Assembly (NCBI RefSeq): GCF_030296675.1
Contig: NZ_AP027736.1
Coordinates: 2,046,001-2,110,000, forward strand
Direction: 5' to 3'
Length of the DNA stretch: 64,000 nt
From: Demequina sediminis
GTDB lineage: Bacteria; Actinomycetota; Actinomycetes; Actinomycetales; Demequinaceae
Part shown: in pieces, positions 1 to 64,000 of the stretch
Layout: each line of letters begins with the position of its first letter
How positions within the stretch are numbered: the stretch's first letter is position 1
Notes under the pieces: model-generated
The model's database searches: none
What the model was told of the DNA's origin: nothing
What the model saw: only the letters and a program-made list of their open reading frames with translations
Made by a program: the position numbers and the translations under genes

Positions 1-1293
1 CTTCGTGCCCGCCGTGATCGTGATCGCGGTCTGGACGTTCGCGATCTGGTCGCTGGTCGGCCCACCGCCGGCGGGGATCTTCGCCCTGGTGGCCGCGGTC
101 GCGGTGCTGATCATCGCCTGCCCGTGCGCCTTGGGCCTGGCCACCCCGCTGTCGATCACCGTCGGCACCGGCAAGGGCGCCACCCACGGCATCCTGATCC
201 GTTCCGCCGAGGCACTGGAGACCGCGCACAAGCTCACCACCGTGGTGCTGGACAAGACCGGCACCATCACCAAGGGCGCCCCGTCGCTGACCGACGTGCT
301 GCCCGCCGACGGGTTCGACGACACCGAGCTGCTGGGCCTGGTCGCCGCCGCCGAACGCGACTCTGAGCACCCGCTCGCGGCCGCGATCGTGGCTGGCGCC
401 GCCAGCGCCGGACTCACCCTGAGCGCAACGCAGGACTTCACCTCGATCACCGGCCAGGGCGTGCGCGCCCTCGTCAAGGGCCGCCAGGTCCTGGTCGGCA
501 ACAAGCGCCTGCTCACCGGCGCCGGGATCGACCCCACACCCTGACCGGCGACCTCGAACGTCTCGCCCGAGACGGCAAGACCCCCATGCTCGCCGCTGTG
601 GACGGTCGCCCGGCCGGGGTGATCGGCGTGGCCGACACCCTCAAGGACGGCTCCATCGAGGCGATCGCCGCCCTGCACGCACGCGGGCTGGACGTGGTGA
701 TGATGACCGGCGACAACCGCGATACCGCAGCGGCCATCGCCCGCCAGGTCGGCATCACCCGTGTCCTGGCCGAGGTCATGCCCGAGCACAAGGCCGCAGA
801 GGTCAAGCGCCTGCAAGCAGGCGGCGGGATCGTGGGGATGGTCGGCGACGGCATCAACGACGCCCCAGCCCTGGCCCAGGCCGATGTCGGCTCAGCCATC
901 GGCACCGGCACCGACGTCGCCATCGAGTCCTCCGATATCACCCTGATCTCGGGGAACCTGTCCGGTCTGGTCACCGCGGTCGACCTCTCCCGGGCCACCA
1001 TGCGCAACATCCAGCAGAACCTCGGATTCGCCTTCGGCTACAACGCCCTGGGCATCCCCATCGCCGCCGGAGTCCTCTACCCCGCCTTCGGGCTGCTGCT
1101 CAGCCCGATCATCGCCGCCCTGGCCATGGCGCTGTCCTCGCTGTCGGTGGTCGCCAACTCCAACCGGCTGCGCCGCTTCACCCCGCACCCGTGCCCGCGG
1201 CCATCACAACGCCGTCCACGGCCACCGAACCGGAGGTCGAGGTGGGACACGACCCCAACAACGACGAGATCACCAAGGAAGAGACCGCCATGA
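1..1293 (+). CDS. copA: Cu(I)-exporting P1B-type ATPase, C-terminal part (frameshifted, start off-window)
   Basis: This is the C-terminal part of a heavy-metal P-type ATPase that pumps Cu(I) out of the cytoplasm; the N-terminus lies before the window. Visible motifs are the membrane CPC site (ACPCALG), the phosphorylation loop DKTGTITKG, the SEHPLA nucleotide-binding HP motif, MTGDN, and the hinge [10 protein letters not shown]. The last two helices carry YN and MALSS, the P1B-1 copper signature. The frame changes near 531-541: four C are read where five would give [11 protein letters not shown]. The stop overlaps the ATG of the next gene as ATGA, so the two are probably translationally coupled. 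The frameshift fits the one-base homopolymer losses seen throughout this record. I infer copper as the substrate from the motifs and the csoR neighbour. Confidence 0.88.
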
Positions 1294-1487
1294 CCCACCA
1301 CCACGAGCACGCCTCGCACCACAACGCCACCGTGACCGACCCGGTGTGCGGGATGAGCGTGGACCCGGCCACCGCGGCGGCCACCCGCGAGCACGACGGC
1401 GTCACGTTCGCCTTCTGCTCCGCCCACTGCGCCGCCACCTTCGACGCCGACCCCCACCGCTACGGCCACCCGCACCCGGCCCACTAG
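1290..1487 (+). CDS. Small YHS-domain metal-binding protein
   Basis: This 65-residue protein begins with a His-rich stretch ([11 protein letters not shown]) and then has a YHS domain: DPVCGMSVD, followed by [22 protein letters not shown] domains are small Cys-containing metal-binding modules often found beside or fused to copper ATPases, where they probably hand over or buffer the metal. The start is well supported, with a Shine-Dalgarno-like AAGGAAGAG just upstream and the ATGA overlap with copA. The role as a copper carrier for CopA is inferred from context. Confidence 0.82.
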
Positions 1488-1506
1488 GACCACCGCCGAC
1501 CACGCC

Positions 1507-1830
1507 GTGAAGGCACGCACACCACGACCGACCCGACCCAGGAAGGACCGCCATGATGACTACGGAACCGACCGCGAGGCCCTCGTGCACCGGCTGCACC
1601 GGATCGAAGGACAGGTCCGAGGTATCGAGCGCATGGCCACGGAGGACGCCTACTGCATCGACGTCCTGACCCAGGTCGCCGCTGCCTCACGCGCCCTGCA
1701 GTCGGTGGCTCTGCTGCTCCTGGATGACCACCTGCGCCACTGCCTCACCGAGGCCGCCCGAGCCGGGCCGAACATGGACGCCGAGGTCACCGAAGCCTCT
1801 CAGGCCATCGCACGCCTGGTACGCAGCTAG
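1507..1830 (+). CDS. csoR: CsoR-family copper-sensing repressor (start uncertain)
   Basis: This is a CsoR/FrmR-family all-helical repressor. The diagnostic RLHRIEGQVRGIERM segment is followed by the Cu(I) ligands of the C-H-C type: Cys in DAYCIDVLTQ and His/Cys in DHLRHCLTEA. In this family copper binding releases operator DNA, so it probably controls the upstream copA-YHS cassette. The in-frame GTG at 1507 has no clear ribosome site. A strong GGAAGGA precedes the ATG at 1553, but that ATG is one base out of frame. Adding one base after it would give a normal short N-terminus, so a small deletion at the start codon is likely. Unlike the other breaks here, this one is not in a homopolymer. Confidence 0.8.
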   Translation: MKARTPRPTRPRKDRHDDYGTDREALVHRLHRIEGQVRGIERMATEDAYCIDVLTQVAAASRALQSVALLLLDDHLRHCLTEAARAGPNMDAEVTEASQAIARLVRS

Positions 1831-2023
1831 CGGCCCTGCCCAACCACCAACGCCCCTGACCCGCCGACTCGTTCGGTGGCGCACCGCTGCGGCCTTGAAC
1901 CGGCCCACGACCACCCATGGAGACCGACATGGCGCACCAGGCACGGATGCGGCACACGCCGCAACCACGGCAGCCGCGACCGCTCCCGCCTCGCGCCCGC
2001 GTTCGTCGGCACAAGCGGCAGTG

Positions 2024-4030: not shown

Positions 4031-4033
4031 ACC

Positions 4034-5766
4034 ATGGTCCTGCTGTCTCACCGTCCACCGCGACCCGCCGGCGGCACCACCGCACCACGAGCCGGACGTG
4101 CCGCAACACGATCCGCACGCTTGGTCAGCGTGCTGCAGGCCGCCGCCGGTGGTCTGCTGACCGAGACCGCCTTCCCGGACCGGTCATGGTGGCCGATGGC
4201 CTTCGTCGGCGTCGCACTCCTCGTACTCGCACTGGACAGGGACTCCCCACGATGGGCTGGGCTGGTCGGCTTCGTGTGGGCGCTGGGCCTGTTCGTCCCG
4301 CACCTGTACTGGGCCAACGAAGCAGCCGGGGTCCTGCCCTGGCTCGCCCTGTCCGTCCTGCAGGCAGCGCTCGTGGCCGTCGGCACCACAGCCTGGGCGC
4401 TGACCAGACGCGTGCCACGCCTGAACCGATACGGGCCGCTGCCGGCAGCCGCGTTCGCCCTCGTCTGGGCCGCCGCCGAGCAACTGCGCTCCAGCTGGCC
4501 GTTCGGGGGTTCCCCTGGGCGCGTCTGGCCTTCTCCCAGACCGAGGGCCCGCTGCTCACCCTCGCATGGCTAGCAGGCGCGCCCCTGGTCTCTGCCGCCG
4601 TCGCCTTCGGCGGGTTCACCCTCGCGGCCACACTCACCCTGGTGCGAGCCCACCGGCTCCGCTCAGCCGCACTGACGGCAGCCGCCACCATCGCGCTGCC
4701 ACTGGCCGGTGCCGCGATCCCGCTGGACACCGACCCACAGTCCGGGACGCTGCGGCTCGCCGCTGTCCAGGGCAATGTCCCCGACGACGACACCCAGGGC
4801 CCTTCCCGGTCGCGTGTCATTCTCGACAACCACGTAGCCGGAACCCTCGCCCTACTTGACCAGGTCGCCCCCGGTGACCTCGACGTCGTCCTGTGGCCAG
4901 AGAACGCCACCGACATCGACCCCCGAGCCGACGACGATGCCTGGCGCGCCGTCGACGAGGCCGCGCAGGCCCTCGATGCCCCGATCCTCGTCGGCACCGA
5001 CCGGTACATCGACGCCGGCCGCTACAACGACATGCTGCTGTGGGAACCGGGCGACGGGCCGACGTTCTCCTACTCCAAACAACGACCAGCACCCTTCGGG
5101 GAGTACATCCCTCTGCGGCCCTTCGTCCGCCTCTTCTCCGCCGAGGTCGACCGCGTCTCCATCGACATGATCCCCGGCCAAGAACCAGCCATCGTCCCCA
5201 TCCTCGTTCCAAGGCTCGACCGGGACGTCCCCGTCGCGACCGTCATCTGCTTCGAAGTCGTCTACGACGCACTCATCCGCGACGCCGTGGTCCAGGGCGC
5301 CGAACTGATCGTGGTCCCCACCAACAACGCCTCCTTCGGCTTCACCGCCGAGTCCACACAACAACTCGCCATGTCCCGGCTACGCGCCGTCGAGCACGGT
5401 CGCGCCACCGTCCAAATCTCCACCGTCGGAGTCAGCGCGATCATCGCCCCCGACGGCAGCGTGCTTCAACAGACCCAACTCTTCACATCCGACCAGATGC
5501 TCGCCGCGCTTCCCCTACGCACATCCCTGACACCTGCCGATCAGCTCGGCGAGTGGCCGACAATCGCCATCGTTGCGCTGTCCCTGGTGGCGCTGCTCAG
5601 CAGGCTCGTAACGACGCTGGGAAGTTCGCGGCGTGACCGTGCCGCGATCGCTTCAGGCGCAACGGGTCCGGCCGAACCTTCGTCAGAACTTGATCGCCGC
5701 TCAACGCAACCGGGTGCGGGCACCAGGCAACCTGAGCTGGATGATGCAGACGCCACCGCCAACTGA
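4034..5766 (+). CDS. lnt: Apolipoprotein N-acyltransferase (frameshifted)
   Basis: Lnt transfers the third acyl chain to the N-terminal cysteine of lipoproteins at the outer face of the inner membrane. The N-terminal part has several hydrophobic helices. The C-terminal nitrilase-like domain carries the triad: Glu in LWPENATD, Lys in YSKQRPAPFGEY, and Cys in VICFEVVY. The frame shifts at the G run 4505-4509, where five G are read and six are needed to give WPFGGFPWARLAF. The start ATG at 4034 lies three bases after the NhaA stop with GGAGGG just upstream, so it is co-transcribed. A copy of lnt in a copper island is unusual. The length after repair is normal for the family. Confidence 0.85.
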
Positions 5767-6167
5767 GGAACTTGCCTCGCCGACACCTCCCGCAGCGCGG
5801 GCCACAGGTCTGCGCGCGGTCTGGACAGCACTCACCGGAGCTACTGGCGTCGTTGTCGGGTTGGCCCCCACGTCCTGCACCACGTCGCGCCCATTTTCGG
5901 CACAGCACTCGTTGCCGGCACCACCGGTACCGCGCTGTTCGGTGCGCTCGGACTCGGGGCAGCGACTCCAATGCTGATCCGACTGCGCCGACGCTTCAAC
6001 TCTTGGTGGGCACCAGCGATCGCACTGATGACCTTCATTGGCGCCTTCTTGATCTCCACTCTCGTCTTCGGCCCCACGATCAGCGGCACCCTAGACACTC
6101 CCCCACGCTACCGAGCGAACCGGCAGACCCGATCGAACACGACTCACACCACCCCACAGACTCCTAG
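5741..6167 (+). CDS. Small membrane protein of unknown function (two frameshifts)
   Basis: I do not recognise the family. If one C is restored at each of two runs (5865-5869 and 6100-6104, both read as five), a single frame runs from ATG 5741 to TAG 6167. It has a polar N-terminus and about three hydrophobic segments: the first contains GLAPHVLHH, then GTALFGALGLG, then a basic loop (RLRRRFNSWW) and AIALMTFIGAFLIS. The tail is acidic and His-rich (IEHDSHH). It overlaps the end of lnt, so it belongs to the same operon. The histidines in a membrane segment and tail suggest a link to metal handling, but that is inference only. Confidence 0.5.
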
Positions 6168-9604: not shown

Positions 9605-11356
9605 ATGACGCTCACCGACCTCCCCTCCGGCCTGGACCTACGCGCCCTGCGCGCTCTGGCCGCAGGCAACCCTGGCCCATCCCAGAAAGCTGACGAGCCG
9701 CTGGCCGAAGGGCTGGTGCCGGCGGTCTCCTACCTGCGGGTCTCGACCAAGGACCAGGCCACCCGTAACGGCCTCGAAGAAGGACTGTCCATCCCGGCCC
9801 AGCGTGAAGCGGCCGCCAGGAAGGCCGAGCAGCTCGGCGCGGTCATCGTCAAGGAGTTCATCGAACCGGGCGAGTCGGCCAAGACGGCGCGGCGGCGTGC
9901 GTTGCAGGAGATGCTCGACTACCTGTCTGCGAATCCGGTGCGGTACTGCATCATCAATAAGGTCGACCGGCTCGCCCGCAACCGGCTGGATGACGCGATC
10001 ATCCACGCCACTCTGCGGGGTGCGAACATCATCCTGGTCTCGGTGACGGAGAACACCGATGAGACGCCCTCGGGGATGCTGATGCACGGCATTCTCGCCT
10101 CGATGGCGGAGTTCTACTCCCTCAACCTCGCCCAGGAGGTCACCAAGGGCATGGTCCAGAAGGCCACCCTCGGTGGTACCCCCACGAAGGCGCCACTGGG
10201 CTACCTCAACGTGCGCACCACTGACTCCAAGGGCCGCGAGGTCCGTGACGTGCAGGTCGACCCCGAGCGGGCCGAGCTGGTGCGGTTCGCGTTTACCGCC
10301 TACGCCACCGGGGAGGAGTCGCTGTCCTCTCTCGCCCGGAAGTTGAAGACCCGCGGGCTCACTACACGCCCCACACCGTCCCAGCCGGCCCGTCCGGTGA
10401 CGACCACGGCGTTGCACAAGATCCTGACGAACCCCTACTACCAGGGCACCGTCACCTTCCGCGGCGTCACCTACGACGGTGCCCACACCACACTCGTGGA
10501 CTCGGATACCTGGCTGCGCGTGCAGACCCAGCTCGACGCGAAGAACGCCGTCGGCGAGCGCCCGCAGAAGTACGACCACTACCTCAAAGGCAACCTGTAC
10601 TGCTCGTGCGGGGCCAAGCTCATGATCGAACGGCCCCGGGACAAGAACGGCGACCGGTACGAGTACTTCACCTGCTCCGGCAGGCGGAAGAAGAAGGGCT
10701 GCACCCGCTCCGCCGTGCTGGCGCCACGGGTCGAGGACCGGATCGACCGGGACTACGGCACCAACGGCCTCGCCGCCACCGAGGCCGAGCACGTCGCGTC
10801 GGTGCTGCACCGAGTGTTCAGCCAGCTCGAAGCCTCCAGTGACAACGAACGCAAGCTCCTCGAAACGCAGCGGGACAAGCTGGAGGCCGAACGCCTCAAG
10901 CTCGTCCAGGCCCACTACGCCGACGCGATCCCACTTGATCTGCTCAAGACCGAACAGGACCGTATCCGCACCAGTCTGGACGCGATCACCAACCGCCTCG
11001 ACGCGCTCGCGACCACCTACCGCGATGCCCACGACGGGCTCGATCAGATCCTCGGCGTCCTGACCGACCTCGGCGACCTCTACGCCCGATGCGAACCTAC
11101 TGAACGCCGCATGCTGAACCGTGCGCTGTTTACCAAGATCGTCGTCGACGAAGACGAGAACGTCACGTTCGTCCCTGCCGAGCCCGCAGCGACCGTCCTG
11201 GCCCACGCTCACAGCGGTGGGACGACCGATCCGGGCCCGGACGCGAACCTGCCCCGCCATCAGACGGGGCAGGTTTCGATTTTCTCAACTTACGTGGAGC
11301 CTAGGGGAATCGAACCCCTGACCTCCTGCTTGCAAAGCAGGCGCTCTACCAATTGA
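9605..11356 (+). CDS. Large serine recombinase (integrase) of the element
   Basis: This is a site-specific serine recombinase of ~580 residues that probably integrates and excises the element. The resolvase domain begins after ~38 residues with YLRVSTKDQ (nucleophile about Ser47) and continues with INKVDRLARNRLDD and LASMAEFYSLNLAQEV. A recombinase domain follows (GYLNVRTTDSKGRE to LTNPYYQGTV). The zinc ribbon is CSC…CSGRRKKKGC, followed by a coiled coil (~390-460). The last ~20 codons run into the tRNA-Ala gene, so the natural C-terminus probably changes on integration. This gene lies at the element edge, as expected for an integrase. Confidence 0.88.
   Translation: MTLTDLPSGLDLRALRALAAGNPGPSQKADEPLAEGLVPAVSYLRVSTKDQATRNGLEEGLSIPAQREAAARKAEQLGAVIVKEFIEPGESAKTARRRALQEMLDYLSANPVRYCIINKVDRLARNRLDDAIIHATLRGANIILVSVTENTDETPSGMLMHGILASMAEFYSLNLAQEVTKGMVQKATLGGTPTKAPLGYLNVRTTDSKGREVRDVQVDPERAELVRFAFTAYATGEESLSSLARKLKTRGLTTRPTPSQPARPVTTTALHKILTNPYYQGTVTFRGVTYDGAHTTLVDSDTWLRVQTQLDAKNAVGERPQKYDHYLKGNLYCSCGAKLMIERPRDKNGDRYEYFTCSGRRKKKGCTRSAVLAPRVEDRIDRDYGTNGLAATEAEHVASVLHRVFSQLEASSDNERKLLETQRDKLEAERLKLVQAHYADAIPLDLLKTEQDRIRTSLDAITNRLDALATTYRDAHDGLDQILGVLTDLGDLYARCEPTERRMLNRALFTKIVVDEDENVTFVPAEPAATVLAHAHSGGTTDPGPDANLPRHQTGQVSIFSTYVEPRGIEPLTSCLQSRRSTN
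11247..11274 (+). terminator. Rho-independent terminator after recombinase
   Basis: ACCTGCCCCG pairs perfectly with CGGGGCAGGT (10 bp, 8-base loop), followed by TTTCGATTTTCT. It lies inside the last codons of the open frame, which suggests the recombinase reading frame beyond it is incidental. It would also insulate the tRNA locus from element transcription. Confidence 0.7.
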
Positions 11357-11367
11357 GCTAAGGCCCC
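11295..11367 (-). tRNA. tRNA-Ala (anticodon TGC)
   Basis: A 73-nt cloverleaf on the minus strand: acceptor GGGGCCT, D-arm AGCTCAATTGGTAGAGC, anticodon arm CCTGCTTTGCAAGCAGG with anticodon TGC, T-arm with GGTTCGATTCC, and discriminator A. No CCA is encoded. The integrated element abuts its 3' end, marking it as the attachment site. Confidence 0.93.
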
Positions 11368-11503: not shown

Positions 11504-11577
11504 TGGGCCCAGGAGGACTTGAACCTCCGACCTCTTCGTTATCAGCGAAGCGCTCTAACCGCCTGAGCTATGGGCCC
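11504..11577 (-). tRNA. tRNA-Ile (anticodon GAT)
   Basis: A 74-nt cloverleaf on the minus strand: acceptor GGGCCCA, D-arm AGCTCAGGCGGTTAGAGC, anticodon arm CTTCGCTGATAACGAAG with anticodon GAT, T-arm with GGTTCAAGTCC, and acceptor TGGGCCC plus discriminator A. The tRNA-Ile, tRNA-Ala order downstream of the gyrase region is typical of actinobacteria. Confidence 0.94.
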
Positions 11578-11676: not shown

Positions 11677-12515
11677 TTAGTCGTCCGTGAGGGTGACGTA
11701 GACGCCGCCCACGACGGAGGAGACCACGTTGTACAGGAACGCGCCGATCGTCGTGAGCGCGGTGATGAGGACCACGTTCACGACCGAGACCAGGATCGCC
11801 GCGCTCATGACCTTGTTGCGGTCGAAGAACTGCATGATGTTGATCTCGTTCTCGGGTGTGAAGAGCTGCAGCACCCACTCGTTGACCAGGGCGAAGAAGC
11901 CCATGCCGTTGAGCACGTTCCAGATGACGAAGACCGCGACCACGAGCATGATGCCCAGCGCGATCGACATGAGGAAGCCCAGCTTGAGCGCGGACCACGG
12001 GTCCACGCGAGAGAGCAGGACGCGCGCCTTGCGCGGTCCACCCTTGCTCGACGGCGTCGCGAGGTCATCGCCCGCCTTGAAGCTCTCCGCGGCGCGGCCC
12101 GCGAGATCCTTGAGCTTCGCGGTGCCCGTGCCGAGCGCTCCCTGCAGGGGCGAGTGCTCCTCGCGGGGCGCAGCGGCGGGCGCCGGAGTGGCCGGGGCGG
12201 GAGCGGCAGGCGCGGACTGCGGCGCGGACGTCGTGGGGATGCCGCCCGGTGCGGACTGCGGGCGCAGCTGGGTGCGCTGGGGGATCGAGCCGGTGGTGGG
12301 TGCGGACGATGCGGGGGCAGCCTGCGCGGGCGCCTGCGGCGCGGCGGGAGGCTGGGGAGTGGTCGGCGTCTGCCCGGTGGTGGGTGCAGTGGCGGGAGCC
12401 TCAGGGGACACGGGCATGAACGCACGCCTCGCCGGGATGGACCCGGTGGTCGGCTCGGCCGGACGGGGGTGTACAGGCCCCTGCTCGGCGGCGTGGTGCG
12501 GTCGTCCGCGTTCAT
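11677..12515 (-). CDS. DUF3566 membrane protein (frameshifted near N-terminus)
   Basis: This is the actinobacterial protein usually encoded straight after gyrA. A long Pro/Ala/Gln-rich cytoplasmic N-terminus with repeated PTTGSIP motifs is followed by the DUF3566 domain (VLLSRVDPWSALKLGFLMS) and two membrane helices (ALGIMLVVAVFVIW and SAAILVSVVNVVLITALTTI). I chose ATG 12515 (MNADDRTTPPSRGLYTP), which has GGGAG upstream; it requires restoring one base at the run 12465-12469 (five read, six needed). Without it another ATG at 12531 leads into the same domain with an odd N-terminus. The function is unknown. Confidence 0.8.
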
Positions 12516-27222: not shown

Positions 27223-28613
27223 TCAGGCCCGCGACTGCTTGATGCGCGCGTGGATCTCGTTGACCTGGTTGTACATCTGGCGGCGCTGAGCGATCTGGTC
27301 CTCGACCTTCTTGACCGCGTACATCACCGTGGTGTGATCCTTGCCGCCGAAGTGATCGCCGATCTTGGGGAGAGAGAGGTCGGTCAGCTGCCTGCAGAGG
27401 TACATCGCGATCTGACGCGCCGTGACGTAGACACGCGAGCGGCTCGTGCCGGTGAGCTCCTCGATCGTGATCCCGAAGTAGTCGGCGGTCTTGCCGATGA
27501 TGGTCGAGGCCGTGATCTCCGAGTCGTCGTCGGAGATGAGGTCCTTGAGGACCACCTGCGCGAGCGAGAGATCCACGGGCTGTCGGTTGAGGGCCGCGAA
27601 GGCCGTCACCCTGATGAGGGCACCCTCGAGCTCGCGGATGTTGCTCGTGATGTTCGACGCGATGTACTCCAGGACGTCCGACGGCGCCTGGACGGCATCG
27701 GCCGCCGCCTTCTTCCTGAGGATCGCGATGCGCGTCTCGAGGTCGGGCGGCTGGACATCGGTCATGAGTCCCCACTCGAAGCGGGTGCGCATGCGCTCTT
27801 CGATCCCGTCGAGGTTGCGGGGGCTGACGTCGGAGGTGATGACCACGTGCTTGCCGGCGTTGTGCAACGCGTTGAAGGTGTGGAAGAACTCCTCAAGGGT
27901 CTGCTCCTTGCCCTGCAGGAACTGGATGTCATCGATGAGGAGGACGTCGACTTCGCGGTACGTACGCTTGAAGCTCAGCGAGCGATCGTCTCGAATCGAG
28001 TTGATGAAGTCGTTGGTGAACTCTTCGGAGTTCACGTAGCGCACCCTGGTCTGCGGCTTGAGATGCCGCGTGTAGTGACCGATCGCGTGCAGCAGGTGCG
28101 TCTTGCCCAGCCCCGATCCCCCATAGATGAACAGTGGGTTGTATGTCTTGCCTGGTGACTCCGCGACCGCGAGGGCGGCGGCGTGGGCGAAGCGGTTGGA
28201 CGGGCCAATGACGAAGGTGTCGAACGTGTAGCGGGGATTGAGGTGCGGGTCCTCGACCACGGGGGAGGCACCACCTCGGGCCGGCGCACCTGGGGCGGGC
28301 GCGGCTCGTCGGTCTCGCCGTCCGCCGGCGGGGGCGGAGTGATCGAGGCGTCGACGGTGACGGCGATCCTCACGTCACGTCCGAGCACCTCGCTGAGCGC
28401 CTCGGTGACCTGACCGCGCAGCGTGGTCTCGACGTAGTTCTTGGTGAAGTCTTCGGCGACCGCGAGGAACACGTTGTCCTCGACCACCGCGAGCGGCTTG
28501 ACGAGGCGCAGGAACGAACGGTTCTGCGCGCTCAGCCCGCCGTCGTCGGCGAGAAAGTCGAGGGCTCCGCGCCATACAGCGTCAATCGAGTCCGAGGCAG
28601 GCTCTGCCACCAC
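27223..28613 (-). CDS. dnaA: Chromosomal replication initiator DnaA (frameshifted)
   Basis: DnaA binds oriC and opens it. Domain I is at the N-terminus ([14 protein letters not shown]), followed by a short proline-rich linker. The AAA+ core has Walker [16 protein letters not shown] and Walker [17 protein letters not shown]. The C-terminal DNA-binding domain has the signature [20 protein letters not shown]. The frame breaks at 28261-28265 in the linker; five G are read and six are needed to join EVVPPP to VVEDPHLNP. Because DnaA is essential, a true break is implausible. GTG 28613 is the first start, with an adjacent GTG at 28610. Confidence 0.95.
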
Positions 28614-30655: not shown

Positions 30656-31130
30656 CCGACAGCATCAAGAAGCTCGACGCCGAGGGTGACGTCGCAGCCG
30701 ACTTCCTCGAGGAACTGCTCGACATCCTCGACATGGATGGCGACATCGACATCTCGGTCGAGGCCGGACGAGCCAAGGTGGCGATCGTGGCCGATGGCCC
30801 GAGCCAGGACCTCAAGCGACTCGTGGGTCCCGAGGGGAGGTGCTCGAGGCGCTCCAGGACCTGACGCGTCTCGCTGTCCAGGCCGACACCGGCGAGGTCA
30901 GCCGGCTCATGCTCGACATTGCGGACTTCCGTGCCGGTCGTCGCGAGCGGCTCGCCGAGCTCGCCCGCGAGGCCATCGCGGTGGTGCGGGAGACGGGCGA
31001 GCGCGTCGAGATGCAGCCGATGAATGCGTTCGAGCGCAAGGTGGTTCACGACGTCGTTCTTGAGGCCGGCCTGGCCTCCGAGTCCGAGGGCGAGGACCCG
31101 CAGCGCTACGTCGTGGTGCTTCCCTCCTGA
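30652..31130 (+). CDS. jag: Jag/KhpB RNA-binding protein, R3H domain (frameshifted)
   Basis: A KH plus R3H protein conserved after yidC. The N-terminal half (DFLEELLDILDMDGDIDI) leads into a KH-like domain; the C-terminal R3H domain includes RRERLAELAREAIAVV and MNAFERKVVHDVV. The frame breaks at 30834-30837, where four G are read; five restore GPEGEVLEALQDLTRLAV. It acts in RNA binding and cell-envelope regulation in other bacteria. Start ATG 30652. Confidence 0.85.
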
Positions 31131-33249: not shown

Positions 33250-34237
33250 TGAGCAAGACCAAGAGGGGCCTGGGGCGCGGACTCGGAGCGCTCATCCCGA
33301 CCGAGCCCGAGGGACCCGTCCAGGAGCGCCCTCGGGACGTCTTCTTCTCGGACACCACGGGCGCGATTCCGACAATCACGCAGGTCTCCGAGGACGGCGA
33401 GCTCGTTCCCGTTCCCGGGGCATCCTTCGCCCATATCGACCCGTACGCCGTCGTACCCAACCCGCGTCAGCCCCGCACCGTCTTCGACGAGGAGGCCCTC
33501 GCCGAGCTCGTCGGATCGATCAAGGAGATCGGCGTCCTGCAGCCGATCGTCGTGCGGCCCAATCCCGAGGGGAGGGCTACGAGCTCATCATGGGCGAGCG
33601 CAGGCTGCGTGCGTCCAAGGAGGCGGGGCTCACCGAGATCCCGGCGATCATTCGATCGACCGACGACAACGACCTGCTGCGTGACGCGCTGGTCGAGAAC
33701 CTCCACCGCAGCCAGCTCAATCCGCTCGAGGAAGCCGCGGCATATCAGCAGCTGCTTGAGGACTTCGGCATCACGCATGAGGAGCTCGCGACCAGGATCT
33801 CCCGGTCGCGTCCCCAGATCTCGAACACCCTGAGGCTCCTGCGCCTCCCGGCGCCGGTGCAGCGACGGGTTGCGGCCGGTGTGCTCTCGGCGGGCCACGC
33901 CCGCGCCCTGCTGGGGCTCGAGTCTCCCGAAGCCATGGAGCTCCTCGCGACGCGCATCGTCGCTGAGGGCCTTTCGGTGAGGGCGACCGAGGAGGCGGTG
34001 ACGCTCGGCGTCGATACCCCGAAGCCACGCAAGGGAGCCGTGCGGGCCGGCGGACGCACCGCGGCGCTCGACGAGCTCGGCGGCAGGCTGGGTGACCGCT
34101 TCGACACGCGCGTCAAGGTCAAGCTGGGTCGCACGCGCGGATCGATCACGATTGACTTCGCGACCGTCGATGACCTCAACAGGATCGTCGGCCTCCTGGA
34201 CCCCACGGATCCGGGAGTGTTTGGAAGCGACTCCTAG
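33249..34237 (+). CDS. parB: Chromosome partitioning protein ParB (frameshifted)
   Basis: ParB/Spo0J, the CTPase that loads at parS. The N-terminus has the ParA-interacting basic [17 protein letters not shown]. The ParB/Srx domain includes [15 protein letters not shown] and, after repair, the [16 protein letters not shown] nucleotide-binding motif. The helix-turn-helix is [20 protein letters not shown]. The frame breaks at 33569-33572: four G are read and five are needed, exactly inside the conserved GEGYELI motif. Start GTG 33249. Confidence 0.94.
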
Positions 34238-35191: not shown

Positions 35192-35221
35192 GAGGTGCGG
35201 TCCTCTCGGAGGTCGTAGCGG

Positions 35222-36531
35222 TCAGTAGAGGTCGGGCGAGGGGAAGTCGACGGTGTCGCCGCGGCGGCCCCCGAGGTTCCGAAGATGCGGACGGTCTCGA
35301 GCTCGGCGTCCACGACCGTCGCGAGGCGGCGCACGCCCTCCCTGATGCGCTCCGGGGTGGGGAAGCAGTACGACAGTCGCAGGTGATCCGTGCCCGAGCC
35401 GTCGATGTAGAACGCGCTGCCCGAGACGTATGCGACGCGCGCCGTGATCGCGCGGGGAAGCATCGACTTGGCGTCGAGACCGTCGGGAAGCCGCACCCAC
35501 ACGTAGAACCCACCGTCGGGCACGTTCCACGACGCCTCGGGGATGTGCTCCCCGAGCGCGGAGATCATCGCGTCCCTACGCTCCCGGTACTGGACCTGGA
35601 ACTTCTTGATCTGGCCCTGCCAGTCGAAGTGCTCAAGGTAGGTCGCGATCGCCATCTGCGACGCGTTCGAGGGGCTGAGGATCGCCGCCTCGGATGCCAG
35701 GACCAGCTTCTCACGCACCGCGTGCGGCGCGACCGCCCACCCGACGCGATATCCCGGAGCGAAGGTCTTCGAGAAAGACCCCAGGTAAATGACGCCTTCG
35801 GGGCTCATCGAGCGCAGTGAGGGGAGCGGTTCGGTGTCGAAGCCCAGCAGGCCGTAGGGATTGTCCTCGAGCACCAGCACGCCGTACCGCTCGCAGATTT
35901 CCAGCACCTGCGGGCGGCGTTCGAGCGACAGCGTGACGCCGCCGGGGTTGTGGAAGTTGGGAACGGTGTAGAGGAACTTCACGCGACGACCCTCGGCCGT
36001 GAGGCGCGCGAGGGTCTGCTCAAGAGCCTCGGGGATGAGCCCGTGCGCGTCCATGGGCACGTGGACTACATCGGCCTCGTGCGCCCGGAACACGCCGAGC
36101 GCTCCCACGTACGACGGCGCCTCGGCCACGATGACGTCGCCAGGATCGATGAAGATCGTCGTCACCAGGTCGAGCGCCTGCTGCGAGCCCGTGGTGACCA
36201 CGACATCGTCCGGATGGGCGACGATGCCCTCGAGCGCCATGACCTCGAGGATCTTCTCGCGCAGCGTGACGTCGCCCTGGCCGGAGCCGTACTGGAGCGC
36301 GACCTCGCCGTGCTCCACGATGATCCGGCGGGACATCTCACCCAGCTCCTCGAGTGGGAGGCCGCCGATGAACGGCATGCCGCCGGCAAGCGAGACCACC
36401 TCGGGGCGGCTCGCGACCGCGAACAGGGCACGAATCTCCGAGGCGCGCATCTGGTGCGCGCGCTGTGCATAGGACCCGTACCAGGGATCGAGACGAGTGC
36501 CTTCGCGCGGGGTGGGGGTGCCGTCGCTCAT
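35222..36531 (-). CDS. PLP-dependent aminotransferase, 2-aminoadipate/valine type (C-terminal frameshift)
   Basis: A class I/II aminotransferase of the MocR-catalytic kind without the HTH domain: SLAGGMPFIGGLPLEEL, LQYGSGQGDVTLREKI, the PLP-stacking VTTGSQQALDLV, VPNFHNPGGVTLSLE, and the lysine loop YLGSFSKTFAPGYRVGW. The C-terminus is broken at 35268-35272 (five C, six needed). Repair gives a short end …GRRGDTVDFPSPDLY and a stop at 35222; the unrepaired frame runs ~70 residues too far. Its substrate is unknown. Start ATG 36531. Confidence 0.85.
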
Positions 36532-36549
36532 GGCGCAAGTCTGGCACGC

Positions 36550-36588
36550 GCACGGGGGTCCAGCCATCACGCGCCTGGACCCCCGTGC
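36550..36588. terminator. Terminator hairpin after trxB
   Basis: GCACGGGGGTCCAG pairs perfectly with CTGGACCCCCGTGC (14 bp, 11-base loop). It lies between the trxB stop and the aminotransferase start and would end the leftward NUDIX-to-trxB operon. Confidence 0.7.
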
Positions 36589-39398: not shown

Positions 39399-41070
39399 CT
39401 ATCGTACGGTGCGCCTCAGACGTCGAAGGAGCGGTGCCACCAGTTCCTGGGCCTCGGGCACCTTGAGGAGGCGCAGCAGCGCCCAGTAGGCGACCCCCAT
39501 CACGGGGATGAGCACCGCAACCGTGCCGATCGACATGACCAGCCTCGCGACCCGGTCGCCCGACTCCGCCGCCGGGATGAGGCGCATCAGCCACCAGCCG
39601 AGCGCTCCGGTCGCGATTGCCGCCGCGGTCGCGCGCGCGATGACGCTGAGGGTGCGCGTGCCGCCCAGGCCGCCGATGCGGCGCCTGACGCCGTTGGCGC
39701 GGAGCACCACACCCACCACGTTGGACAGGCTCAGGGCGAGCGCGACGCCCGCGGTCCACCACGCGAATGGCAGCGTCTCGCGCAGGAGGAACATGCCTCC
39801 CACCCACGCGATCGTGACGGGAATCTGGATGAAGAAGACTGCTCGCCCGTCCTCGAGCGCGAAGAAGACGCGCTTGAACACCGAGAGCAGCCCCAGCGGG
39901 GCCGCGCCGAGCGCGAGGGCCATGAGCACGTAGGCGACCGACTGCACCTCCGCCTCCGGCTGTGCGGGCAGCGCGATGCGCGTGAGTGCGGGCGCGAGGG
40001 CGACGAACACGGCGGTCGACCACAGACCGAAGACAGTGACCATGCGCAGCCCGCGCTGCGTGGTCGCGCGCAGCGTCGCGAGGTCCCCCGCGGCAGCGTG
40101 CCTTGCCATCGGCGTCGCGAGCGCCGTGACGAGCGAGACCGTGACGATCGAGTGCGGCACGAGGTAGAGCATCATCGCGTTGAAGTAGGCCGCGTTGCCG
40201 GCGATGTCCACGGCGTTGAGGTCCTCGGCCGCGGCGCTCGCGGCGGACGCGACCCTGGTCGCCATCACCACGCCGACCTGGTCGAGGAGCACCGCGCCGA
40301 GCGCCCAGCCGGCGACGCTCGTGATGCCGCGGAGCTCTCCTTGGGGCCCTTCCAGACCGGAGCCCACCGGTAGCCTCCGCGTCGCAGCGGCCAAATGAGA
40401 ATGAGTGCCTGCGCCGCGATGCCGAGCGTCGCGGTCCCGGCGAGGAGCGCGATGCGGGCGGCGGACCAGTCGGGCTCGACGACGTCCGCGTCGAGGGCGT
40501 AGCCGCCGTAGATCGCGAGATACGCGACGAGTCCGGCGATCGACACCACGTTGTTGAGCACGGGCGCCCACATGTACGGCCCGAACTGCTCCTTGGCGTT
40601 GAGTACCTGGCCCAGGATCGTGTAGACGCTGTAGAAGAACAGCTGCGGGATGCACCAGAACGCGAATCCGATCGCGAGCTGGCGCTGCGCGACGGACCAG
40701 TCCTGCGTGTACATCACGACGAACACGGGCGCTGCGATGGTGAACAGCACCGTGACCGCGAGCGAACCCGCCACGCCGAGCGTGACGATTCTGTCGACCG
40801 TGCGCTTGCCGTCCTCGCGGCGGAAGGCCCGCACGATCTGCGGCACGAGCACCGCGTTGAGGACGCCCGCCGCGATGACGGCGTAGAGGGCGTTGGGGAT
40901 CTTGTTCGCGACGTCGTATGCGTTGCCTGCCACCGTGTTGACCGCGATGGCGGCGGCAAGCAGGGCGTTGCGCGCAAAGCCCAGTCCGCGCGAGACCAGC
41001 GTGCCGGACGCCATCACGAGCGTGTGCCGCCGCAGCGATCCGCGGGGGCCTCCGGCGAGTCGGTGGTCAC
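39399..41070 (-). CDS. murJ: Lipid II flippase MurJ (two frameshifts)
   Basis: MurJ/MviN, a polytopic flippase that moves lipid II across the membrane. The N-terminal region has MASGTLVSRGLGFARNALL and NAYDVANKIPNALYAVIAAG; many helices follow. Two breaks: 41044-41048 (five G, six needed, joining GTG 41070 to …GSLRRHTLVMASG) and 40343-40346 (four G, five needed, giving WKGPQGELRGITSVAGWAL). With both repaired it is ~557 residues, normal length. GTG 41070 overlaps the DUF6049 stop. It is essential, so the breaks are most likely artefacts. Confidence 0.88.
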
Positions 41071-43052: not shown

Positions 43053-43593
43053 GGAGCAATCGCGAGGAGACGGGCGGCCGCCTGGGCCATCTTCCGCTCA
43101 TTGGGATAGGCGAGCTCGCGCATGAGGTCGGCCACCGCGATCCAGCGCGCCACCTCCGCCTCATGATCGGGGTCTTTGTCCGTGGTGATGATGCCCGCGC
43201 GCGCCTCGAGAAGGTAGTGGTGGACTACCTTGTGCACGCGGCGATCATCGCCCGTGAACCAGTAGTCGATCACGCCCAGCGGCTGAATGATCTCGGCATC
43301 GATTCCCGTCTCCTCCGCGACCTCGCGCACCGCAGCGATCTCGGGAGTCTCCCCTCCTCGATGTGACCCTTCGGCAGGCACCACTCGAGGCGGCCCGCGC
43401 GGTTGCGGCGCCCGATGCACGCGGCGTATGCGATCCCGTCCTCGACGCGCACCGCGATTCCTCCCGCGGAGGTCTCGTTGCTCACCGGCAGGTGAGGCGT
43501 GCGGTGGGCGGCGGTCTCGCGTCGCTGGCGGGCCGGCACACCCGTGGGCGGCATCGGCACCGGGCCGGGACGCGGGACGGGCGGCGTGGGCAT
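43049..43593 (-). CDS. NUDIX hydrolase (frameshifted in Nudix box)
   Basis: A ~181-residue NUDIX protein of the kind next to murJ in mycobacteria. The Nudix box reads GHIEEGETPEIAAVREVAEE followed by TG once one base is restored at 43351-43354 (four C read, five needed). Without it the catalytic box is split. The N-terminus is Pro-rich; NETSAGGIAVRVEDG starts the domain. It probably hydrolyses a nucleotide diphosphate or diadenosine phosphate. It is the first gene of the leftward murJ operon and divergent from cca. Start ATG 43593. Confidence 0.82.
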
Positions 43594-48287: not shown

Positions 48288-49667
48288 ATGGGGGACATGA
48301 CGGTGGCCGCGGCGGTGGCGGCGACGCCCGACACGCGAGACCGCTTCGTTGATCTGGTGCGCGTTGGATCACTCGTGGGCGTGGTGCTGGGCCACTTCGC
48401 GATGGCGGCGGTGACGCTCGACCACGCGACAGGGACGGTCGACATCGCCAACGTGCTCGAGTCCGCGCCGTGGACGCGGCCGCTCACGCTCGTGTTCCAG
48501 GTGATGCCGCTGTTCTTCGTGGTGGGCGGCTTCGCTCACGCCGTGGCGTGGGTGTCGCTGCGGCGCCGGGGCGGGGGATACGCCGACTTCGTGCACGCGC
48601 GCATCGGCCGCCTCATTCGGCCGACGCTGGTGTTTGTGTCCGTGTGGATGGCGGCGGCGGTGGTCATCGAAACCGTGTGGGGCGACTCTCCCGCGACCGG
48701 CCCGCTGCTGCAGATCGCGGGCCAGCTGCTGTGGTTCATCGGCATCTACCTCATCGCGGCGGCGTTCGCCCCGGCCCTGCACGCGGCCCATCGGCGGTGG
48801 GGCGGGTGGGTGATCGCGGTTCTCATGCTCGCCGCGATCGCGGTCGATGCGGCACGCCTCGCGGGTGGGGTCGACGGGGTGAAGTGGCTGAACTTCGCGT
48901 TCGTGTGGCTCGCGATTCATCAGCTGGGCTTCTTCTATGCGGACGGCGTCGCCGACCGCTGGGGTCCCCGCCGGCTCGGGGCGACGATGCTCGCCGTGGG
49001 CACGCTTGCCGTCGCGGCGCTCGTGGCATGGGGGCCGTACGGGCTGTCCATGGTGTCGTACGAGGGCGAGGAGCTGTCGAACCTCGCGCCGCCCACGGTC
49101 GCGCTGTTGGCCTTCGGCGTCGCACAGGCGGGGGTGGCGCTGCTCGTGCGCGGGCCGGTGCGGCGGGCGCTCGCGCAGCGGCGCGTGTGGGCCGTGGTGG
49201 TGGCGGGCGGCGCGGTGGCGATGACGGCCTTCTTGTGGCACTTCACCGCCTTGGTCGCGATCTATGCCGCCCTGTGGGTCGCGGGGGTGGACCTCGAGGC
49301 GGACCCGACCACGGCATCGTTCTGGTGGACCAAGCTCGCGCTCCTGCCGGTCTTCCTCGTTGTGGTGGCGGGCCTCGTGGCCGCATGGCGGCGCTTCGAC
49401 CGCCCCCCGCGGCGGGACGGGCTCGTCGGGGTTGGTCGCGCGCGAGCCGCCGTGGCGGCGCTCGCGGTCGCGTGCGCGATTGTCGGCATGCTCGCGTTCG
49501 CCGTGGTGGGATTCCGTGGCGCGGCGAGCGGCTACGTGGGCCGGCTCGTGGGACTGCCCGTCACGGCCTGGGCCGCCCTGGGGCTGACCGTCGCGGCCGC
49601 GGTGCTTGCGGAGGCGGCGGTGAGGCGCGTGAGTAGAGTGGCGGAGGCAGAGGGGAGCCAAGGATGA
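48288..49667 (+). CDS. Acyltransferase-3 family membrane protein
   Basis: A 459-residue membrane protein with about ten helices and the acyltransferase_3 start: RDRFVDLVRVGSLVGVVLGH (catalytic His region), then MPLFFVVGGFAHAVAWVS and the conserved Arg in HARIGRLIRPTLVFV. Such OafA/YrhL-like proteins acylate cell-surface glycans or lipids. The ATGA junction couples it to the DUF805 gene. It contains the only six-base G/C run I found in the window (49,403-49,408). Confidence 0.78.
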   Translation: MGDMTVAAAVAATPDTRDRFVDLVRVGSLVGVVLGHFAMAAVTLDHATGTVDIANVLESAPWTRPLTLVFQVMPLFFVVGGFAHAVAWVSLRRRGGGYADFVHARIGRLIRPTLVFVSVWMAAAVVIETVWGDSPATGPLLQIAGQLLWFIGIYLIAAAFAPALHAAHRRWGGWVIAVLMLAAIAVDAARLAGGVDGVKWLNFAFVWLAIHQLGFFYADGVADRWGPRRLGATMLAVGTLAVAALVAWGPYGLSMVSYEGEELSNLAPPTVALLAFGVAQAGVALLVRGPVRRALAQRRVWAVVVAGGAVAMTAFLWHFTALVAIYAALWVAGVDLEADPTTASFWWTKLALLPVFLVVVAGLVAAWRRFDRPPRRDGLVGVGRARAAVAALAVACAIVGMLAFAVVGFRGAASGYVGRLVGLPVTAWAALGLTVAAAVLAEAAVRRVSRVAEAEGSQG

Positions 49668-50115
49668 CCTTTGGCGAGGCGGTGTCGACGTGCCTGCGTG
49701 CGTACGCGGGCATCCGTGGGCGCGCCCGCCGCAGCGAGTTCTGGTGGTTCCAGCTCTTCGCCGCGGTGCTGTGGCTGCCCACCGTCGCCACGTTCTCGCT
49801 GCTGTGGGGCGCGGCCTTCGAGGGCTCTCTCGCCCCCGCCGAGGATCCCGCAATCAACCCCGATGCCGTCGGGTGGGGGCACTCACCGGCGCGTTCGGCG
49901 TGGTGGTGGTCTACCTCGTGGTGGTCGTGATCCCGAGCCTGTCCGTCTGGGCGCGCAGGCTCCATGACACGGGCATGAGCTCGGCGTGGATCCTGCTGTC
50001 GGTGGTGGGTCTGGGGATCATCCCGCTCATCATGGCGATTCCCCAGGGCCAACCCGGCGCCAACAAGTACGGCCCCGATCCACGCGTGCATTCCCGAGTG
50101 GCGGCGGGCCGCTAG
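49664..50115 (+). CDS. DUF805 membrane protein (frameshifted)
   Basis: A DUF805 (YhaH-like) protein of ~150 residues: FGEAVSTCLRAYAGIRGRARRSEFWWFQLF, whose RxxRSEFWWF motif is diagnostic, then a helix, and after repair VVVVIPSLSVWARRLHDTGM, the second conserved block. The break is at 49875-49879 (five G, six needed, restoring VGWGALTGAFG). The function is unknown. ATG 49664 overlaps the acyltransferase stop. Confidence 0.8.
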
Positions 50116-58451: not shown

Positions 58452-58942
58452 ATGGCAGGCGACACTCAGATCACCGTGGTCGGCAACCTCACCGGAGACC
58501 CGGAGCTTCGCTTCATCTCCTCCGGCGCGGCTGTCGTGAACTTCACGGTGGCGTCCACCCCCGCACGTTTGACCGTCAGTCGAACGAGTGGAAGGACGGC
58601 GAGACCCTGTTCATGCGGTGCTCCCTGTGGCGCGAGGCTGCCGAGAACGTCGCAGAGTCCCTCACCAAGGGCATGCGCGTGATCGTCACCGGACGCCTTG
58701 TGTCGCGCTCGTGGGAGGCGAACGGCGAGAAGCGCTCCGTCACCGAGATGCAGGTCGACGAGGTCGGCCCGTCCCTGAGGTACGCCACGGCCAAGGTCAC
58801 GCGCACGCAGCGCGGCGGCCAGGGCGGCGGCGGATTCGGCGGGGGCAACTCCGGTGGCGGCGGCTACGGCGGCTCGCCCGCCGGTGGCTCGTCGAACGAC
58901 CCGTGGGCCTCGGCCCCCGCGTCGGACGAGCCCCCGTTCTAA
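58452..58942 (+). CDS. ssb: Single-stranded DNA-binding protein (frameshifted)
   Basis: The chromosomal SSB: OB fold starting [40 protein letters not shown] after repair, [18 protein letters not shown] and [14 protein letters not shown]. It ends with a Gly-rich linker and the conserved acidic tip …ASDEPPF that binds partner proteins. The break is at 58558-58562 (five C, six needed). It is essential, so the break is probably an artefact. ATG 58452. Confidence 0.94.
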
Positions 58943-59744: not shown

Positions 59745-59762
59745 GCTGTGTCTTGGGGTGGG

Positions 59763-61692: not shown

Positions 61693-61759
61693 GCATCCCT
61701 CGCTCGCACGGCTCCGAACACGTACCGTACGCACAGACGGCAACGGCGAGGAGGCCGCG

Positions 61760-62392: not shown

Positions 62393-63260
62393 CGGCGATC
62401 ACGACCGCGACCGCCGCCGCCGCGGCCACCGCCACGAGTGCCACCAACACGGCGGTGCCCCACGACTGAATCGCGAGCGAGATGCCCGACTGCCAGCGCG
62501 CGGTCGCGAGCAACACCGGGTTGAGTGCGGTGATGCCGTAGCGCGGCAGGATCTCGGCCAGCGCGAACACCACCACGTAGATCCCGGCCGCCACCATGAG
62601 CACGCCGCCGGCGCGCATGAGCAGCGGGGTGCGGCGCCGCAGGGCCGCCGCAGCGCCGGCGCCAGCCACCGCGGCCGCGAGCGAGACGAGCACGACAGTT
62701 GCTCCCATGCCCACCGCGTACGCGACGAACGGGGCGATCGTCTGCGCGGGACCCGGTGCCGCGAGGGCCTGGGTGACCACGGTGAGGAACAGGCCGATCG
62801 TGCAACTGAGCGAGGCGATCGCGAAGGATGCGCCATACGCGACTTGCGACGCGAACGTGCGCCCCGGGGCGTGCGACGCGCGACTCAGTGCTGCGAGCCC
62901 CGGGCCGCGCAGCTCGCCGCGCGCCGTCATCACCACGCCGAGCCAGACCACCAGGACCCCGAGCGCCAGCGTCACCCACGACACATACGGCAGGACGGTG
63001 GCCTGCAGTCCCAGGCTGATGCCGCCGAAGACCAGGCCCAGCGCCGTGAAGATGGCCACAAACCCCGCCGTCATCGCAAGAGCGAAGCCCAACGCGCGAC
63101 GCAGGGCGACCGCGCGGGGAGGCGGGGCATCGTCCCCTCCCAGGGCGCCCGCGCTCCGGGTGATGATGACCGTGAGGTAGGCCGGCAGGAGCGCGAAGCC
63201 GCACGGGTTGAACGCGGCGACCGCGCCGAGGAGGAGGGCGTATGCGACGGCGTCGGCCAT
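62358..63260 (-). CDS. CcdA/DsbD-type membrane thiol transporter
   Basis: A 300-residue membrane protein with about seven or eight helices and the CcdA pattern: AAFNPCGFALLPAYLT (first conserved Cys in NPC) and ASLSCTIGLFLTVV (second Cys). CcdA carries electrons from cytoplasmic thioredoxin across the membrane. ATG 63260 has AGGAGT upstream. It is convergent with a ResA-like lipoprotein whose 3' end it overlaps; together they form a redox relay. Confidence 0.87.
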   Translation of the reverse strand: MADAVAYALLLGAVAAFNPCGFALLPAYLTVIITRSAGALGGDDAPPPRAVALRRALGFALAMTAGFVAIFTALGLVFGGISLGLQATVLPYVSWVTLALGVLVVWLGVVMTARGELRGPGLAALSRASHAPGRTFASQVAYGASFAIASLSCTIGLFLTVVTQALAAPGPAQTIAPFVAYAVGMGATVVLVSLAAAVAGAGAAAALRRRTPLLMRAGGVLMVAAGIYVVVFALAEILPRYGITALNPVLLATARWQSGISLAIQSWGTAVLVALVAVAAAAAVAVVIAARRTRSSRRTR

Positions 63261-63394
63261 GGGGACTCCTGGGTCGGGTGCCTGCTGTTCGGGTGTCTGC
63301 TGTTCGGAAACGTGGCGGCGGCGGACGGGCGACGATGCTTCGCTCACGCTAGTGGCCCACCTCGCCGCGGTCGGGGCGCCGCCTCCGACGAGAT

Positions 63395-63415
63395 TGATAA
63401 TCGTTCTCGTTATCC
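63395..63415. promoter_or_regulatory. Zur-type zinc operator
   Basis: The sequence has GATAATCG and, after four bases, CGTTATC, an imperfect palindrome resembling Zur/Fur boxes (TGATAAT…ATTATCA) and unusually AT-rich here. It lies 100 bases upstream of the zinc chaperone gene. Confidence 0.6.
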
Positions 63416-63514
63416 GGTAGGGTCACGCTGTGCGCCGATCAGGAGGCGCCGCCGGGAGCGATCCCGGACTCCCCGTTCACGGAAAGGCGGGCCCTCGACG
63501 GGCCTTGGTACCCG

Positions 63515-64000
63515 ATGTCCTTCTCACGCTCCGCGCGACGCGCCACCACGGCCGGCGTCGCGGCCCTGTCTCTTCTCGCACTGACCGCGTGCGCCTCAAC
63601 CGAGGCCGGCGAGTCCTCCCTCAGCGCCTCGCCAAGCGCCAGCGACGACCACGACGACCACGCCCACGAGGCCGCCCAGGCGACGGAGGCGACGGCCGCG
63701 ACCCCGCGCATCGTCCTCACGTATGACGGCGGGCTGGTCGTGCTCGACGCGAACTCGCTCGAGACCGAGGCGACCCTCGAGCTTCCCGGCTTCAATCGCA
63801 TCAGTTCCGTGGGCGACGGGCGTCACGTCGCGGTGTCGACCACTGGCGGCTGGGCGATCGTCGACGCCGGCACCTGGACGCAGGCGCACGGCGATCACGC
63901 GCACCACTTCACGTCCGAGCCCGCGCTCCACGAGGTGATCCTCGAGGCGGAGGAGCCTGGTCACGTGGTTCCGCACGACGGCCTCACGGCCTTCTTCGAC
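63515..64000 (+). CDS. aztD: Zinc chaperone AztD-like lipoprotein (3' end off-window)
   Basis: The gene starts at ATG 63515 (MSFSRSARRATTAGVAALSL) with a lipobox LALTAC and runs past the end of the window. After the Cys comes a Ser-rich linker and a His/Asp-rich metal-binding stretch (SDDHDDHAHEAAQ), then the beginning of a beta-propeller-like domain (RIVLTYDGGLVVLDANSLE, GDGRHVAVSTTGGWAIVDAG) with AHGDHAHHF. This matches my memory of AztD, the periplasmic zinc chaperone for AztABC transporters. The Zur-type box upstream agrees with zinc-starvation control. Confidence 0.7.
   Translation, partial: MSFSRSARRATTAGVAALSLLALTACASTEAGESSLSASPSASDDHDDHAHEAAQATEATAATPRIVLTYDGGLVVLDANSLETEATLELPGFNRISSVGDGRHVAVSTTGGWAIVDAGTWTQAHGDHAHHFTSEPALHEVILEAEEPGHVVPHDGLTAFFD

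What the first reader, a model, noticed from the sequence alone, without database searches (positions are those of the whole stretch)
1..64000. Systematic loss of one base from G/C homopolymers breaks at least 13 genes
Fifteen frame breaks all sit at a G or C run and all are repaired by adding one base to it: copA 532-535, lnt 4505-4509, small membrane protein 5865-5869 and 6100-6104, DUF3566 12465-12469, perR 15680-15684, dnaA 28261-28265, jag 30834-30837, parB 33569-33572, aminotransferase 35268-35272, murJ 40343-40346 and 41044-41048, NUDIX 43351-43354, DUF805 49875-49879, ssb 58558-58562. Ten runs read as five need six; five read as four need five. By eye I found only one G/C run of six in the window (49,403-49,408), although at ~70 percent G+C many are expected. 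Essential genes are hit. The record most likely under-calls homopolymers, and apparent pseudogenes here should not be trusted.
Basis: partly seen in the sequence, partly recalled or inferred. Interest (0 to 1): 0.85.

Follow-up and report, generated by a model that had tools for sequence, protein, structure and literature searches.

The report
Assembly under-counts G/C runs
The broken genes in this actinobacterial genome are almost certainly errors of the sequence record, which drops one base from some stretches of repeated G or C, so the genes should be treated as intact until accurate reads say otherwise.

Summary
The window lies in a single-contig Demequina genome. A missing base is supported at 13 of the 15 listed sites (weakly at copA and the second murJ site); two sites could not be tested. 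One further break was found (copA, 1181-1184). One placement (murJ 40343) is doubtful.

Evidence that the record, not the organism, is wrong: (1) intact DnaA and ParB from other contigs match the window's two frames on either side of the break (ParB without mismatch); (2) both 23S rRNA copies carry five G where all 7 same-genus sequences aligned have six; (3) a frame caller finds 52 internal missing-base breaks in 400 kb of this genome, against 1 in 398 kb and 4 in 280 kb of close relatives; extra-base breaks are 7, 3 and 6; (4) six-G runs survive after T but are mostly lost after A or C.

The argument that many six-base runs are expected at 70% G+C is weak: the genus avoids them (62 observed, 175 under synonymous shuffling). 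Against syntenic relatives about 13 are expected in the window and 1 is seen; in the genome sample the shortfall is about 2.5-fold. Known error class; the sequencing platform could not be verified.

The parts
532..535 (+). copA-like P-type ATPase, frame break at a C run read as four
   Evidence: PF00702 split between two frames; frame caller interval 521-542. Protein alignment is noisy: centred on 1181 three relatives' proteins give a missing base at 532 and one at 541; centred on 532 two give 427 and 523 and two are wrong-strand
1181..1184 (+). second break in copA, not in the finding; provisional
   Evidence: frame caller interval 1179-1211; missing base at 1182, 1182, 1191 with three of four relatives' proteins, the fourth gives an extra base at 1191
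4505..4509 (+). lnt, frame break
   Evidence: PF20154 split 2-123 / 120-156 between two frames; missing base at 4505 with the one true relative protein of four rows, which also shows an extra base at 4135
5865..5869 (+). small membrane protein, proposed break
   Evidence: run present; reading frames listed; no relative or Pfam family, so untested
6100..6104 (+). small membrane protein, second proposed break
   Evidence: run present; untested by homology
12465..12469 (-). DUF3566 protein, frame break
   Evidence: five of five relatives one base longer; missing base at 12470 with the one true protein of four rows; PF12089 downstream
   Evidence: coding-frame match to five of five relatives stops at 15680; one-base gap beside a larger gap of a multiple of three against five of five relatives
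28261..28265 (-). dnaA, frame break
   Evidence: intact protein P0004 matches both frames, switching at 28260-28263, one mismatch elsewhere; 4 of 4 relatives at 28265, one of them with an extra base at 28620 too
30834..30837 (+). jag, frame break
   Evidence: 11 of 11 relatives one base longer; 3 of 4 proteins place it at 30832, the fourth is a 61-residue ORF on the other strand
33569..33572 (+). parB, frame break
   Evidence: intact protein P0123 matches both frames without mismatch, switching at 33569-33572; 4 of 4 relatives at 33567
35268..35272 (-). aminotransferase, frame break near the C-terminus
   Evidence: PF00155 in 35059-36570; 10 of 10 relatives one base longer; 3 of 4 proteins at 35274, the fourth wrong-strand
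40338..40351 (-). murJ, frame break; place uncertain, the finding's 40343-40346 is one option
   Evidence: PF03023 split 8-192 / 195-433 between two frames; three relatives' MurJ proteins at 40342, 40351, 40351, a fourth row unrelated
41044..41048 (-). murJ, second break near its start codon
   Evidence: relatives' N-termini continue well in one frame after the run and weakly in another before it; DNA alignment undecided; no MurJ protein reached it
43351..43354 (-). NUDIX protein, frame break
   Evidence: five of five relatives one base longer; PF00293 from profile position 32; one search gives 43351-43352 but only with over-long or wrong-strand ORFs
49875..49879 (+). DUF805 protein, frame break
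   Evidence: PF05656; four of four relatives one base longer; missing base at 49880 with one protein, three other rows unrelated
58558..58562 (+). ssb, frame break at a pure C run
   Evidence: five of five relatives have six C with near-identical flanks; 4 of 4 proteins place it at 58557, two of them (over-long ORFs) with further shifts upstream
49403..49408 (.). the only G/C run of six in the window

Best explanation
The deposited consensus under-counts G/C homopolymers. Where the chromosome has six G or C (and less often five), reads or base-caller gave one too few, and the consensus kept it because most reads shared the error. Loss depends on length and on the base before the run: six-G runs after T are read correctly, those after A or C mostly lose one. 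The genes are intact in the cell. Shown: excess of losses only, genome-wide, in protein and rRNA genes, context-dependent, intact near-identical copies elsewhere. Inferred: a long-read assembly without short-read polishing, most like older Oxford Nanopore data; and that the intact copies are of the same species.
For: Intact DnaA and ParB from other contigs match both window frames with the switch inside the run. Both 23S copies have G5 where 7 of 7 aligned sequences from 6 same-genus genomes have G6, while four conserved runs of five are unchanged. Internal missing-base breaks: 52 in 400 kb of this genome (39 at a G/C run of four or more; 27% expected by chance), against 1 in 398 kb and 4 in 280 kb of close relatives; extra-base breaks 7, 3 and 6. 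Six-G runs 75 seen, 182 expected: after T 37 vs 33, after A 5 vs 33, after C 33 vs 116. Completeness 92.99, against 98-100 in 29 of 36 same-genus relatives; the other 7 are in 120-230 contigs. Published error class (passages: PMC8011154, PMC9262707, PMC8486125).
Against: No reads were available and the platform is unknown. At most protein sites relatives have an interrupted run, so the lost base need not be a run base. 13 of the 52 internal breaks had no run of four or more in their interval. Broken runs read as four are enriched before A (17 of 25 contexts), more context-specific than length alone predicts. Low six-run density is not diagnostic by itself: G008 and G010 have about 10 per 100 kb and are 99-100% complete, against 8.5 here.
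Confidence: 0.96

Rival explanations
1. The breaks are real: a lineage with relaxed selection or defective mismatch repair has lost bases from its G/C runs and the genes are pseudogenes.
For: Slippage in runs is a known mutation type (general knowledge); the breaks are in the record.
Against: Genes known as essential in other bacteria (dnaA, ssb, murJ) and both 23S copies are hit alike; no comparable excess of extra bases (7 in 400 kb, against 3 in 398 kb and 6 in 280 kb), whereas slippage gives both; loss depends on the 5' base; near-identical copies of two genes are intact.
Confidence: 0.02
2. The runs are truly short and the cell corrects them by programmed ribosomal frameshifting or transcriptional slippage.
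For: Breaks sit at homopolymers, which can promote slippage (general knowledge).
Against: Runs of four or five are short for slippage (general knowledge); 108 internal sites were called in 864 kb; 23S rRNA is affected, where translation plays no part; near-identical copies of two genes are intact.
Confidence: 0.01
3. The record is wrong, but partly because of modified bases: a signal disturbed at modified positions drops a C or another base beside a G run, rather than miscounting the run.
For: Relatives have interrupted runs at jag, NUDIX, aminotransferase and most at dnaA; broken runs of four favour a following A; GAGGGGAG 37 seen, 18 expected, with no deficit of GAGGGGGAG (17 and 14).
Against: ssb and 23S are pure six-base runs in every relative aligned; the six-run deficit alone is 107 in 864 kb; the 25 contexts show no longer shared motif by eye.
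Confidence: 0.1

Closest known systems
Residual homopolymer indels in Nanopore-only bacterial assemblies (PMC8011154, PMC9262707, PMC8486125; passages seen)
   Same: Systematic homopolymer indels that break frames and inflate pseudogene counts; longer runs tend to be underestimated, worst at high G+C
   Different: Platform of this record not verified; here the excess is in losses only, with a strong effect of the 5' base that I did not look for in those papers
Spurious pseudogenes from assembly errors in public genomes (PMC11017572; passages seen)
   Same: Apparent frameshifted pseudogenes caused by assembly
   Different: The passages stress coverage and assembler; the word homopolymer does not occur in the text
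Phase-variable homopolymer tracts (contingency loci; recalled)
   Same: One-base changes in runs switch frames
   Different: Those involve longer tracts in surface genes, gains as well as losses; here runs of four to six in housekeeping genes and rRNA

Membership tests
Long-read homopolymer under-call artefact | Errors are nearly all single-base losses | tested here: met
   52 missing, 7 extra internal breaks in 400 kb; controls 1 and 3 in 398 kb, 4 and 6 in 280 kb
Long-read homopolymer under-call artefact | Losses concentrate at homopolymers and grow with run length | tested here: met
   39 of 52 at runs of four or more, 27% by chance; six-runs 75 of 182 expected, five-runs 1686 of 1373, not depleted
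Long-read homopolymer under-call artefact | Genome-wide, blind to gene function, including non-coding RNA genes | tested here: met
   20 spread stretches, breaks by a missing base in 19 of 20 (overlap-like ones included); both 23S copies
Long-read homopolymer under-call artefact | Other assemblies of the species lack the breaks | tested here: met
   P0004 and P0123, two genes tested of two; proteins only, species inferred from identity
Long-read homopolymer under-call artefact | Independent accurate reads show the longer run | not testable with these tools
   no reads held
Long-read homopolymer under-call artefact | Assembly made from long reads | tested here: inconclusive
   a single 2.7-Mb contig fits; record metadata not available; a paper search for Demequina, complete genome and nanopore listed one paper, on Bacillus
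Phase-variable contingency loci | Long tracts (recalled: about eight or more bases) in variable surface or regulatory genes | tested here: not met
   no G/C run over six in the window; genes hit include dnaA, ssb, parB, murJ, lnt
True pseudogenes | Dispensable genes, also broken or decaying in relatives | tested here: not met
   no relative's ORF shows the break where one spans the site; replication and cell-wall genes hit

The most novel reading that the evidence does not exclude
Part of the losses, those at four-base runs followed by A where relatives have an interrupted run, marks modified bases in this Demequina that disturb the read signal, so the error pattern would be an unintended map of an uncharacterised DNA modification.
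Probability: 0.07. Interest if true: 0.35.

Novelty: not a real feature. Interest (0 to 1): 0.1.

Why it matters
The search set holds one genome per species, so this record's apparent pseudogenes would mislead gene-loss and essentiality studies. Scaled from the 400-kb sample, the caller would report roughly 350 internal breaks in 2.7 Mb, and more exist, because it found at most 9 of the 15 listed sites. Biologically nothing new follows, except that the genus's own avoidance of G/C runs of six or more should be the baseline.

Tried and rejected
A first survey of frame breaks by tblastn of all relatives' ORFs drowned in wrong-strand ORFs and was dropped. A first frame caller had a scoring bug (734 events) and a second was trained on wrong-strand ORFs; both were discarded. 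The third used genes chosen by conservation and a codon model; the fourth, used for all counts, a phase-specific order-4 Markov model with leave-one-out controls. A script failed on a file name, and the first rRNA alignment mixed strands; the work was redone. Of the 17 rRNA places, 9 were aligned (2 own, 7 same genus); the 8 of three same-order genomes were left out. Frame-aware protein alignment also aligned unrelated, over-long or wrong-strand ORFs. Rows scoring below about 420 were not used (true genes 688-2020), except for copA, whose rows score about 300-370; two high-scoring rows with wrong ORFs (mangrovi_54 at perR, an extra base; mangrovi_28 at NUDIX) were set aside, and perR was settled by translated matches. 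The idea that a low six-run count alone proves the artefact was rejected. The k-mer comparison was dominated by base composition.
Full report
WHAT WAS CHECKED. The window is positions 2,046,001-2,110,000 of a single-contig genome of 2,705,399 bases.

THE BREAKS. DNA alignments with 4 to 11 relatives were obtained at 11 of the 15 sites; the first four have none. At ssb, jag, parB, dnaA, NUDIX, the aminotransferase, DUF3566, DUF805 and the first murJ site the window is one base shorter than every relative aligned; at perR likewise, beside a larger gap of a multiple of three. The second murJ site lies in a variable stretch where the DNA alignment does not decide. Frame-aware protein alignment puts a missing base at or within a few bases of the run in lnt, DUF3566, dnaA, jag, parB, the aminotransferase, murJ (first site), DUF805 and ssb; for NUDIX only over-long or wrong-strand ORFs do so, and for copA the rows are low-scoring and disagree. 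Pfam domains of copA, lnt and murJ continue from one frame to the next across the break. For perR the match to five of five relatives stops at the run. At the second murJ site the N-terminus continues in another frame after the run, with only weak similarity before it. The two small-membrane-protein sites could not be tested. A further break in copA at 1181-1184 is likely.

LIMITS OF PLACEMENT. Adding one base anywhere nearby restores a frame, so frame alone does not show that a run base is missing. At ssb it is, because all five relatives have six C with near-identical flanks. At the first murJ site the listed run is one of several options.

INTACT COPIES. A search with the C-terminal piece of DnaA listed P0004, 463 residues, 100% identical over the whole query. 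A search with the ParB piece listed P0123, 329 residues, also 100% over the whole query. Both are representatives of clusters made at 90% identity; the clusters stand for 14 contigs (longest 27,186 bases) and 2 contigs (longest 215,023), none as long as this genome's contig; sources are not shown. Set against the window's frames one by one, ParB matches residues 2-108 in one frame and 108-329 in another with no mismatch, and DnaA 2-118 (one mismatch) and 118-463 (none); both switches fall inside the listed runs. That these are the same species is inferred from the identity. The breaks are therefore unlikely to be a trait of the species.

RIBOSOMAL RNA. Both 23S copies of this genome (at 242 and 988 kb) have five G where seven sequences from six other genomes of the genus all have six. 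Four conserved G/C runs of five there and in the neighbouring 16S are unchanged. A variable 16S stretch is also one G shorter than in the one comparable relative.

GENOME-WIDE RATE. A frame caller trained on the five relatives was run on 20 spread stretches of this genome (400 kb, two of them flanking the window) and, leaving each species out of its own training, on the relatives (398 kb). Breaks inside genes by a missing base: 52 against 1; by an extra base: 7 against 3. Of the 52, 39 have a G/C run of four or more in their interval; 27% would by chance. Two further blocks of 200 kb of this genome, chosen, gave 19 missing (15 at runs) and 5 extra, and 28 (19) and 3; the window gave 9 (7) and 1. 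Other stretches of three of the relatives (280 kb) gave 4 missing (1 at a run) and 6 extra. Breaks resembling gene overlaps were about equally common (missing-base type 32 and 27) and were not counted; this filter also removed jag. In the window the caller found at most 9 of the 15 listed sites, 7 with the run in the interval, so rates are lower bounds.

THE RIGHT BASELINE. Relatives of similar G+C have 80 runs of six or more in 398 kb, against 1 in the window and 30 in the 400-kb sample. The genus avoids long runs: in 360,600 coding bases of the relatives there are 62 runs of six and 2 of seven, where shuffling synonymous codons gives 175 and 47. Whole-genome counts of exact six-G runs, both strands added, are 230 here and 226-709 in 36 relatives of the genus. 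Per length this genome is lowest (8.5 per 100 kb), but G008 and G010 are close (about 10) and 99-100% complete, so the count alone proves nothing.

CONTEXT. Over 864 kb (window, spread sample and the two chosen blocks) six-G runs number 75 where 182 are expected from relatives. After T 37 are seen and 33 expected; after A 5 and 33; after C 33 and 116 (sums over the following base are mine). Of 108 internal missing-base breaks, 51 lie at runs read as five, 25 at runs read as four, 4 at six and 28 at none; of the 25 (one of them the cut end of a longer run), 17 are followed by A, as are 28% of all runs of four. A dependence on the base before the run fits a measuring process better than mutation followed by selection (inference).

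OTHER GENOMES. Of the other Demequina assemblies in one or two contigs seen, three do not share the pattern in 100 kb each: G001 2 missing and 3 extra, G003 2 and 0, G018 0 and 1. G009 has 6 and 7, a mixed pattern, and a split DnaN. The caller was trained on other species and calls only 61-84% of these as coding, so it may miss more there. In G010 and G008 (60 kb each) it gave 1 and 2, and 0 and 0.

LITERATURE. Passages (not whole papers) of PMC8011154, PMC9262707, PMC8486125 and PMC11017572 were seen. They describe homopolymer indels in Nanopore assemblies that break frames, good estimates for runs below five with longer runs tending to be underestimated and the worst results at high G+C, and spurious pseudogenes from assembly. 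A search for Demequina with nanopore and complete genome listed one paper, on Bacillus, so the platform stays an inference.

VERDICT. An artefact of a known class, shown by intact near-identical proteins, rRNA, rate, direction and context. Interest is low.

Noticed in passing
G009 (single-contig Demequina genome), C1:1086821-1087958: DnaN matches in two pieces, and 100 kb of this genome gave 6 missing and 7 extra internal breaks: probably another imperfect assembly, with a different error mix.
   Followed up: partly
five Demequina relatives, 360,600 coding bases (L021-L040): Avoidance of long G/C runs: 62 runs of six against 175 under synonymous shuffling, 2 of seven against 47, none of eight against 20.
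   Followed up: partly
G000:C1 about 1.66-1.78 Mb: Six-base runs are denser here than in the spread sample (27 in 120 kb, L078-L082 and L053); cause not resolved.
   Followed up: partly
   Followed up: partly
window 11295-11367 and 11504-11577: Two tRNA genes on the minus strand; no other Rfam family reaches its gathering score in the window.
   Followed up: no
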